Shown in pieces: positions 55,901 to 58,900 of a DNA stretch of 64,000 nt. The notes under the pieces were generated by a model that made no database searches, was not told where the DNA came from, and saw only the letters and a program-made list of their open reading frames with translations. Position numbers and translations under genes: made by a program. Source of the DNA: Tubulanus polymorphus (Eukaryota; Nemertea; Palaeonemertea; Tubulaniformes; Tubulanidae). Position 1 is the stretch's first letter. Each line of letters starts with the position of its first letter. The DNA lies in NCBI RefSeq assembly GCF_964204645.1, contig NC_134028.1, positions 3,570,501 through 3,634,500 on the forward strand, given 5' to 3'.

Positions 55901-58900
55901 AATCCTTGTTAGTCCAGTGAGTCTCGTATGCTTGCTAAGTCGTGTTTCAGCTATATGGCTACGTATTGCTTCAGTAAATCGGCGTATGCCGGTTAATTAT
56001 TTGATTGTGGTTTTGTTGTATATGTGGAATATTGTAGGTGATATTCGTAGATGAAGATGCGATCGATGCTGGTGGGGTACGAAAGGTAACAAATAATCGC
56101 GGACAGACGGATGGAATATCGTTCTCCATTGAACCATTAGGCAATTATTGTTATCCCTCAACCATCTGTCTACCCTGGAGAATTCAGTCACCTGTTTTCG
56201 AGAATTTGAGTAACAGCTTCAGGTTCCTTTCTCTAGGGTGCAGAGATGAGGAGTTGTCCACAGTCGACATTATTGTCTAGTTTGGAACTAAAAGTGTAGG
56301 CCTCTCCTTAAGGATGGATGTCCCTCATTTGAATATTTCCAGTAATATGTGAATGAAAATCTAAATAGCACTGCATCAATGTCGCTTGAGAGGATAGGAT
56401 AAGATAACTCGTACATTGTCGGTGGTTCAGTGAATGATGATATGATCTGTATTTGGTTTTCGAGTGGTAGACACTCGCTTTCTAATGAGTGTCTGCTGCA
56501 CATGTGTTAGACCATAGGTAACTATGACACTACGTGTGTGTGAACCGTACTCTAAACATTGTCCAAATTCATACCCGGTACCATATTCATGATGATTCAG
56601 TCCCTACTGAAAGAAGCATGATTTCGTTTAGAAAAATCTCCAGAAAAAAATGTACCGTTCTGTTTTGTGTACGTTGAGTTGAAGTGTTGACAATGTTTGA
56701 GCGGTACGCGCGCTGTATGCTTATCTAACCTGTAGTTGCTGTACTGTACTGTTCTATTTCAGGTTATATTCCTCGGGGAGGACGCTGTAGATGAAGGAGG
56801 GTTAAAGAAGGTCCGAACAATTATCGAAATTTAGCAATTTTTCAAAAATTCTCGCATGTTGCTTTTTACCGCCATACCGCACTTGAGCCCTAGTTCTACA
56901 TTCTTCTGCTTTGAGCAAATTCATTCAGCACCAAAAAAAATTTCCTTGACTTTCTTAATGTTATCATACATTTGGATCACTGATGTCTAGTGGCTCTAGT
57001 GCGGTTGGAATGATTGCATTGTGGGTTGGTCTCTAGTTTCATCTGCTTAAAATTTGATTTTCGATGCTTTTCTCGAAGAAGTAAGAAAATGTTGCACGGA
57101 ATGGGTACCTGTAATTGAGTTCAGTTTCCCGTGGTTGGTTGTGGTTTCTAGATTTGCCTGGTTCGGTTGGAATGAAGAGTCTGTAATCATTCTGACTGTA
57201 TTTTCCAAATTGCCATTGGTTTATTGCATTTATTTTCATCAGCATGTTCTTAAACACCGAATGAATTTGTCAAAACCGAGGCGAATCGAGGAAAATTTTG
57301 AAGGCAGGGGTCTAGAAGAAAAGGAAGGGCATTCCTCAGACAAAGCAGCCACGCCCCAATGGTCACCAGCGGGGTTATATTGCTATCCAAAAAGACACTA
57401 TTTCCGGGAGGATTTGTGTCAAATTTATTGGTTTTAACAATCTCTGTTTTGATGAAACGGGTTACCTTGATGGTAAGGCAGGGGTCTGGATTCCCAAAAC
57501 CACCATATATGATCCACGCCTGCAACAGATCTAGAAAATCCTTACATTCATAAACAGCCGCAATCTTCCTTGGTGTTAGAAATAAGTCACTTATAAGGAC
57601 TTTCATGATTATATTTGAATGATAAAATCACTAGCTACCTCACGAATTGTACACTATACACTTCACACGGGTGTTTGAGGTATTGTTTGCATTGCAGAAT
57701 CTTTACTTTCATTCATCTTATGTAATTTCGATAGATTATTCTTCCTACATATATATATTCATATTGACTAAAATCATTATGATTTTAATATCAGTAAATC
57801 AAAATATTGTATTCAATTATTGGCTATGAAGAACTGATAAGAATTGCAGAGTTTTATCCGAATTAAAGAATGAAAGATGATGTTTGAAGGTATAATGTGT
57901 ATTATTTGCTATTGTAGGAGTTTTTCTTATTGATAATGCGAGAGATAATGAATCCTCAGTACGGAATGTTCCGTTATTTTGAGGAATCGCGGCTGCTTTG
58001 GTTCAATGATCGCGTAAGTATCGGTTCGTTTTTGTTCGCCGTGATTCCGATCGATTCGTGGTAATCTTGAATATCTCGATTTCGGTTTGATATTTGCAGT
58101 CATTCGAAGATCCGTGTATGTTCAATTTGATCGGTAAAATCTGCGGTCTCGCGATTTATAACTCAATCATCATCGATCTGAATTTCCCACTCAGCCTTTA
58201 TAAAAAACTGCTCAATCAGTAAGTGACGTGATCCGACATATCCAGAAATCTTTTCACCAGATTTGAGTTTGTCGCATGAGAGAACGAACCTATTTTCTTA
58301 TTGTTGATAATTCTCCTATTTTATAGACCGGCCACTCTGGAAGATTTAAAAGATCTTGAACCAGTTATTGGCAGGTAAAATGTCTTGTTTTTTGTACGCC
58401 CTATTATAAGTTTTGTCTAGTATATAGCAGCTGGATGTCGATAATTTCATTCACAGGAGTTTAGAGGATATGCTTGAATATTACATGGATGATTTTGAAG
58501 ACGTCTTCCCCATGAATTTTGAGGTAATTCCCGCCGTAAAACCACAATTGCATCCACATCAAAATCTAGTCGTCCTTTTATGAGCTCATTCTTGAAAATA
58601 GTGTATATATTTCCGTCACTTCAGTCTCATCAGGTATAATATATGAAGTGAACTATGTACAGAAGGGCATTAAGCCTACAGCGAAAATAAACAATTATTT
58701 AGAATAAGATTAAAAGAATTTTCAAAGATCAATAGGTGTGACAGTGTATACCGGTATACTATTTTCAAGGATGAATTATTATAGTTGCGATTCTGCTGTC
58801 GCTCTATTTACGATTCTTGATTTCAGATCGAAAGAGAAGTTTTCGGCGAGATTGTTAAGATTCCCCTGGTGGAGAACGGCGACACTATTCACCTGACGAT

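What the first reader, a model, noticed from the sequence alone, without database searches (positions are those of the whole stretch)
56038..56810. Two interchangeable 48-bp exons encode the same HECT segment of HERC4
Exon 17A (56038-56085, [16 protein letters not shown]) and exon 17B (56763-56810, [16 protein letters not shown]) have the same length, phase and position before EFFLLIMRE. Both keep the conserved hydrophobic-acidic-GG pattern of HECT domains, which suggests both are under selection. Their donors are suboptimal (GTAACA and GTCCGA), as often seen in regulated exons. Swapping them would change residues near the E2-binding N-lobe entry of the ligase. I know of no described HERC mutually exclusive exon pair.
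Basis: partly seen in the sequence, partly recalled or inferred. Interest (0 to 1): 0.78.

Follow-up and report, generated by a model that had tools for sequence, protein, structure and literature searches.

The report
Two alternative active-site exons in HERC4
A ubiquitin-ligase gene of an unnamed animal carries two old, interchangeable-looking copies of the short exon that encodes a catalytic loop of the enzyme, so the cell could make two versions of the enzyme's active site, but no RNA data were available to show that it does.

Summary
Two 48-nt, phase-0, GT-AG exons (A 56038-56085, B 56763-56810) lie between the same exons of a small HERC (RCC1 + HECT) gene. They share 10/16 residues and 31/48 bases, with changes concentrated at third codon positions. 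A copy left neutral since the duplication would rarely look like this (weighted P about 0.013 either way). Both donors are weak for this gene. No third copy was found in the window.

The exon does not align to the E2-binding site. It aligns to the HECT N-lobe ligation-organizing loop (Rsp5 491-495; UBR5 D2283-E2287), part of the composite active site for ubiquitin transfer to the acceptor. Both exons keep the residues aligned to the essential Rsp5 E491 and D495. They differ at 489, 490, 494, 496, 499 and 500. A has Asp at 490, as UBR5 does; B has Gly, as UBE3A and NEDD4-type enzymes do.

Best reading: an alternatively, probably mutually exclusively, spliced pair that gives one ligase two active-site loops. 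Exclusivity, use of exon B and any functional difference are inferred. "Both" and "neither" transcripts stay in frame, so the frame enforces nothing. My paper searches showed no HERC or HECT precedent.

The parts
54866..55039 (+). Upstream exon of the HERC4-like gene, ends ...VDLKKPLK, donor AAA|gtaagt
   Evidence: open frame, GT-AG, continuous alignment to E6AP
56038..56085 (+). Exon [17 protein letters not shown], ligation-organizing loop variant with Asp at Rsp5 position 490 and DAGG
56086..56762 (+). 677-nt stretch between A and B; a 174-nt query from its start (56086-56259) matched only its own place in the genome
56763..56810 (+). Exon [17 protein letters not shown], ligation-organizing loop variant with Gly at Rsp5 position 490 and DEGG (as UBE3A)
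57918..58013 (+). Downstream exon [18 protein letters not shown]..., its first residue aligns to Rsp5 E502
58100..60309 (+). Remaining seven HECT exons to the stop codon, with the HTCFN active-cysteine motif and Phe at -4
46913..53048 (+). 5' half of the same gene with RCC1 repeats (exon ends approximate, start codon assumed)

Best explanation
Exons A and B are an old tandem duplication of the exon that encodes the ligation-organizing loop of a small HERC (HERC4-like) ubiquitin ligase. Both are kept as functional alternatives, and each mRNA most likely carries exactly one of them. Shown: the pair, its frame and splice sites, its alignment to the loop, retention of the residues aligned to the essential Rsp5 acids in both copies, and substitution patterns that fit selection on both. 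Inferred: that both are spliced into mRNA, that the choice is exclusive and regulated through weak donors, and that the swap (D/G at 490, I/V at 494, A/E at 496, plus 489, 499, 500) tunes how the ligase orients the acceptor lysine or ubiquitin without abolishing activity.
For: Same length, phase, flanking exons, GT-AG sites and no stops. 10/16 identical residues, with changes enriched at third positions. Neutral-copy simulation P about 0.013-0.014 whichever copy is freed. Both exons keep F488, E491, D495, G497, G498 and a basic residue at 501; E491 and D495 are essential for ligation in Rsp5 (passages) and the UBR5 loop is required for chain formation (section read). Both also share Ala at 493, where all eight other sequences of the table have Gly, which fits a common origin from one HERC exon. 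A HECT without this segment lacks the loop, and one with both carries a 16-residue insertion at it, so exclusive use is the only pattern expected to give an intact enzyme (inference). Donors are the two weakest of 25 by the gene-trained matrix.
Against: No RNA evidence of any kind. Exon B's donor (+3C, +4C) is among the poorest of the gene by either matrix. Nothing enforces exclusivity: 48 nt is a multiple of 3 and the A-B gap is 677 nt, ample for splicing A to B. Complementary stretches in the intron are within the shuffle range. The tested splice-factor motifs (recalled) showed no clear excess. The Pfam HECT model starts after the exon and scores the A, B, neither and both forms alike (324.5, 324.5, 324.7, 324.3 bits), so it says nothing for either exon. 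The test that A/B differences fall at variable HECT columns is not significant (P 0.079), and position 490, where they differ, is Gly in all eight other sequences of that table. No orthologue from another species could be examined.
Confidence: 0.68

Rival explanations
1. Exon B is a formerly functional copy now decaying or very rarely used; the gene in practice makes only the A form.
For: B's donor AAG|gtccga ranks 25th of 25 by the gene-trained matrix and 23rd of 25 by the generic one. Recalled, not from a call: human HERC4 and HERC3 read DAGGVRK as exon A does, so B looks like the derived copy.
Against: B has no stop, intact AG and GT, an ordinary acceptor (16th of 20), and keeps the residues aligned to the essential ones. 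The B form scores better than the A form against 26 of the 27 solved HECT chains listed (e.g. E6AP 313.9 vs 309.5, Itch 212.2 vs 211.8, Rsp5 4lcd 189.7 vs 188.5 bits), worse against one (pub2, 192.5 vs 194.1); those 27 were chosen by their score with B. A long-neutral copy is unlikely, though recent decay is not excluded.
Confidence: 0.16
2. The two exons are alternative but not exclusive: transcripts with both or with neither occur, and serve as in-frame ligase-dead or altered forms.
For: All four combinations stay in frame without internal stops; the gap between the exons allows A-to-B splicing.
Against: The loop is essential for ligation in Rsp5 and required for chain formation in UBR5; an insertion or deletion there should inactivate the enzyme, and tandem homologous exons of equal length are often used one at a time (established knowledge; PMC5740500 notes that many similar neighbouring exons are not exclusive, passage).
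Confidence: 0.13
3. Artefact: chance open frame or assembly error such as a collapsed second allele or gene copy.
For: None beyond the absence of RNA.
Against: Score 57 against a next best of 25-27 in the window; the two copies differ at 17/48 bases, and 600-nt flanks show only 9-14 nt matches apart from the overlap of the two stretches compared; no second small HERC gene appeared in the genome.
Confidence: 0.03

Closest known systems
Mutually exclusive tandem-duplicated exons in general (e.g. FGFR IIIb/IIIc; Drosophila MHC and 14-3-3zeta; human MXE atlas PMC5740500)
   Same: Adjacent homologous exons of equal length and phase between the same flanking exons, encoding alternative versions of one structural segment
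   Different: Exclusive use not demonstrated here; no HERC or HECT example in the main texts searched or in the listings of my ten paper searches
HECT ligation-organizing loop of UBR5 (PMC10830417) and catalytic loop 491-495 of Rsp5 (PMC3738095)
   Same: Exons A and B align to this loop and keep the residues aligned to Rsp5 E491 and D495
   Different: In those proteins as described it is one fixed sequence; here two genomic versions exist
Human HERC4 exon 23 skipping (PMC7536242)
   Same: Alternative splicing within the HECT part of HERC4
   Different: A skipping event at another site (the paper's exon primer encodes DLHFPL, by my reading), not a duplicated exon

Membership tests
Mutually exclusive exon pair | Homologous tandem exons of same length and phase between the same flanking exons | tested here: met
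Mutually exclusive exon pair | Both copies open, with canonical splice sites | tested here: met
   (donors weak)
Mutually exclusive exon pair | One and only one exon per mature transcript | not testable with these tools
   no RNA data held
Mutually exclusive exon pair (known enforcing mechanisms, not defining) | Frameshift on double inclusion, or an inter-exon intron too short to splice | tested here: not met
   48 nt is a multiple of 3; gap 677 nt
Mutually exclusive exon pair (known enforcing mechanisms, not defining) | Competing RNA pairings | tested here: inconclusive
   6.5 inverted pairs vs shuffle mean 4.25, range 1.5-9 over 20 shuffles; no comparative data
Small HERC ligase | RCC1 repeats followed by a HECT domain in one gene | tested here: met
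   RCC1 over the cut-off in 5 of 5 peptides given, chosen from the 5' half; HECT 324.5 bits. That the two halves are one gene is inferred from order, strand and frame
Small HERC ligase | Catalytic cysteine motif in the C-lobe | tested here: met
   [10 protein letters not shown] aligned to E6AP HTCFNVLLLP
Small HERC ligase | Orthology to HERC4 rather than HERC3/5/6 | not testable with these tools
   no animal proteomes held; the name rests on resemblance. No second small HERC appeared
HECT ligation-organizing loop | Alignment to Rsp5 491-495 / UBR5 D2283-E2287 | tested here: met
   with residue numbers; UBR5's loop is one residue shorter, so its E2287 is placed only approximately
HECT ligation-organizing loop | Essential acids (Rsp5 E491 and D495) present | tested here: met
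   present in both exons

The most novel reading that the evidence does not exclude
One HECT ligase switches its ligation-organizing loop by exon choice, so that splicing rather than gene duplication sets acceptor-lysine or chain-linkage preference. The A form has an Asp-led DAGG loop (UBR5-like first residue, HUWE1-like DAGG) and the B form a Gly-led UBE3A-like DEGG loop.
Probability: 0.33. Interest if true: 0.75.

Novelty: new member of a known kind. Interest (0 to 1): 0.52.

Why it matters
Tandem alternative exons are well known, but a pair that swaps the active-site loop of a ubiquitin ligase would be a natural two-state experiment. It offers two naturally occurring versions of the ligation-organizing loop in an otherwise identical enzyme, which makes the question of what this loop contributes to acceptor and linkage choice directly testable.

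Tried and rejected
Competing-RNA-structure mechanism: complementary pairs exist (for example 55070-55082 with 56723-56735, 28-40 nt before exon B, and 55096-55108 with 56040-56052 inside exon A), but their number is within the shuffle range, so I do not claim it. A hairpin after exon A's donor was suspected by eye, but the fold is no better than shuffles (z 0.22) and the stretch matched only itself in the genome. Splice-factor motif counts (motifs recalled) showed no clear excess; three overlapping CTCTCT at 55861-55865 against 0.7 expected are one short run, TGTGTG is 3 against 1.2, and TCTT is below expectation, 12 against 21.3. Retrocopy as a record of splicing: none seen, where the best non-local hit had 60% identity. 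Relatives of the gene in viral contigs and genome contigs: none confirmed. Organism identification by a mitochondrial protein query: no hit. A test that A/B differences avoid conserved HECT columns was not significant (P 0.079). NCBIfam, a prokaryotic library, gave nothing and Rfam nothing at gathering scores. I set aside structure prediction, because the spliced protein is not read letter for letter from the window DNA. I considered and dropped the claim that the exon's 3' intron position is shared with NEDD4-type genes: in L004 a likely donor splits the arginine codon.

Full report
Observation. The window lies in a 268-Mb genome (G000:C4:3570501-3634500) for which no relatives are held. Reading the region and joining the exons in a script gives a continuous reading frame from 53502 to the stop at 60309 with GT-AG introns. 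Between the exon that ends at 55039 and the one that starts at 57918 lie two 48-nt exons, A (56038-56085) and B (56763-56810). Either one completes the frame; both together or neither also stay in frame. The 5' half of the gene carries RCC1 repeats (5 of 5 peptides given) and the 3' half a HECT domain at 324.5 bits, so it is a small HERC. The Pfam model starts after the exon and scores the A, B, neither and both forms alike (324.5, 324.5, 324.7, 324.3 bits), so it does not bear on the choice. The name HERC4 rests on resemblance; no animal proteome was available. A search with the last 67 residues gave 11 matches: its own locus and 10 others, the best of those 61% identical over 47 residues, so I see no second small HERC in this assembly.

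Is it more than chance? In six frames of the whole window, exon B is the best match to exon A by far (57 against 25 for the next) and the reverse holds (57 against 27). The two differ at 17 of 48 bases, 10 of them at third positions, and keep 10 of 16 residues (Fisher P 0.007). If one copy had been free of selection since the duplication while the other kept its residues, the chance of no stop and at least 10 kept residues is 0.0137 (B free) or 0.0126 (A free), averaged over divergence times weighted by the third-position data. At low divergence (t 0.2-0.3) the chance is 24-61%, but 10 or more of 16 third-position differences are then unlikely (0.9-7%). The test does not exclude a recent loss of constraint. 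The 600-nt flanks of A and B share only short matches of 9-14 nt apart from the overlap of the two compared stretches. The duplication is therefore old.

Splice sites. Acceptors of both are ordinary: by score A ranks 12th and B 16th of 20. Donors AAG|gtaaca and AAG|gtccga are the two weakest of 25 by a matrix trained on the gene (23 other donors picked by hand, those of the RCC1 half by eye, which favours strong sites). With a recalled generic matrix A is 12th and B 23rd of 25. With only the 13 donors fixed by protein continuity they are 13th and 14th of 15. Weak donors fit regulated exons, but B's donor also fits a failing exon.

What the exon encodes. The phmmer alignment to E6AP and the Rsp5 and UBR5 chains place the exon on the HECT N-lobe loop. 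With residue numbers from PMC3738095 (passages) and PMC10830417 (passages, section 9), the 16 exon residues correspond to Rsp5 486-501, and the next exon begins at the position of Rsp5 E502. In Rsp5, E491 and D495 are essential for ligation, the L494A Y496A double mutant is defective, and the aspartate is distal from the centre for E2-to-E3 transfer; the loop itself was not visible in that structure and was placed beside the thioester by superposing NEDD4L and by modelling. In UBR5 the loop D2283-E2287 (DEPGE) was named the ligation-organizing loop; replacing it with alanines specifically impaired chain formation. A 2026 review treats it as a part of the HECT composite active site (PMC13196369, passages).

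Comparison of A and B with other HECTs. In a table of eight other sequences (five from this genome, three solved chains), both exons keep F488, E491, D495, G497, G498 and a basic residue at 501. They differ at 489, 490, 494, 496, 499 and 500. Position 490 is Gly in all eight and in B, and Asp in A; UBR5 also has Asp there (D2283). Position 493 is Gly in all eight and Ala in both A and B. Position 496 is Glu in B and in UBE3A and Ala in A and in the HUWE1-type paralogue. Differences tend to fall at variable columns, but not significantly (P 0.079). The eight exclude loops interrupted by introns and the divergent HERC1/2-, UBE3B/C- and TRIP12-like loops (names by my reading). Recalled, not from a call: human HERC4 and HERC3 read DAGGVRK here, so A is probably the ancestral form. 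Against solved HECT chains the B form scores better in 26 of the 27 listed, the A form in one (pub2); those 27 were chosen by score with B.

Uniqueness. Of 16 other HECT loci fetched, none showed a second convincing loop copy. Thirteen gave a recognisable loop by pattern or profile, some only weakly or cut by an intron, and three (L002, L014, L016) gave none. The profile scan printed at most four hits per locus; its other hits at scores 16-20 (in L005, L010, L011, L012 and L014) are not loops by inspection. The fetched stretches do not cover whole genes, and HECT matches outside these 16 loci were not examined.

Mechanism. Most likely one exon is used per mRNA (inferred). A HECT with neither lacks the loop and one with both carries a 16-residue insertion in it; both should fail in the ligation step (inferred). 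No structural device for exclusivity was found: no frame penalty, a 677-nt gap, and no RNA pairing or motif clearly above chance. Regulation through the weak donors is my preferred guess.

Literature. Ten searches of the PMC library. None of the listings showed a HERC or HECT mutually exclusive exon pair. Limits: one search matched 4,394 papers on loose terms with 20 listed, one search matched 76 with 10 listed, one search matched 23 with 15 listed; most listed papers were not opened. The human MXE atlas PMC5740500, the human tandem-exon paper PMC9741552 and PMC9013439 contain no word beginning with HERC or HECT in their main text (find only); their supplements, where full gene lists would be, could not be read. 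HERC4 exon 23 skipping in breast cancer (PMC7536242, passages) is a different event. Subscription papers were not searched.

Verdict. A real, old and probably functional alternative exon pair in a catalytic loop. It is a new member of a well-known kind of splicing feature in an unusual place. Exclusivity, expression and functional effect remain untested.

Noticed in passing
window 55549-55785: Intron upstream of exon A holds pieces of a dispersed repeat: 56 matches genome-wide including itself, up to 99% identical over about 105 nt. A related stretch is visible by eye near 54510-54620.
   Followed up: partly
window 57301-57523: Intron downstream of exon B holds an old dispersed repeat: 40 matches including itself, the others 66-91% identical over parts of it.
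   Followed up: partly
G000 C1:4411763, C1:21790526, C4:19506779, C7:10233585, C8:3177644, C10:11519627: Six equally scoring matches to positions 211-293 of the HECT model, each inside a 632-aa open frame, plus others in shorter frames: looks like a multi-copy element that carries part of a HECT domain.
   Followed up: no
window 44256-46315 (minus strand): Open frames that read like an RluA-type pseudouridine synthase gene (HRLDYATSGVLCLGK, GRTHQLRVH; family name recalled, frames).
   Followed up: no
window about 38100-38270: A tandem repeat that gives SVGR/PTDR runs in several frames.
   Followed up: no
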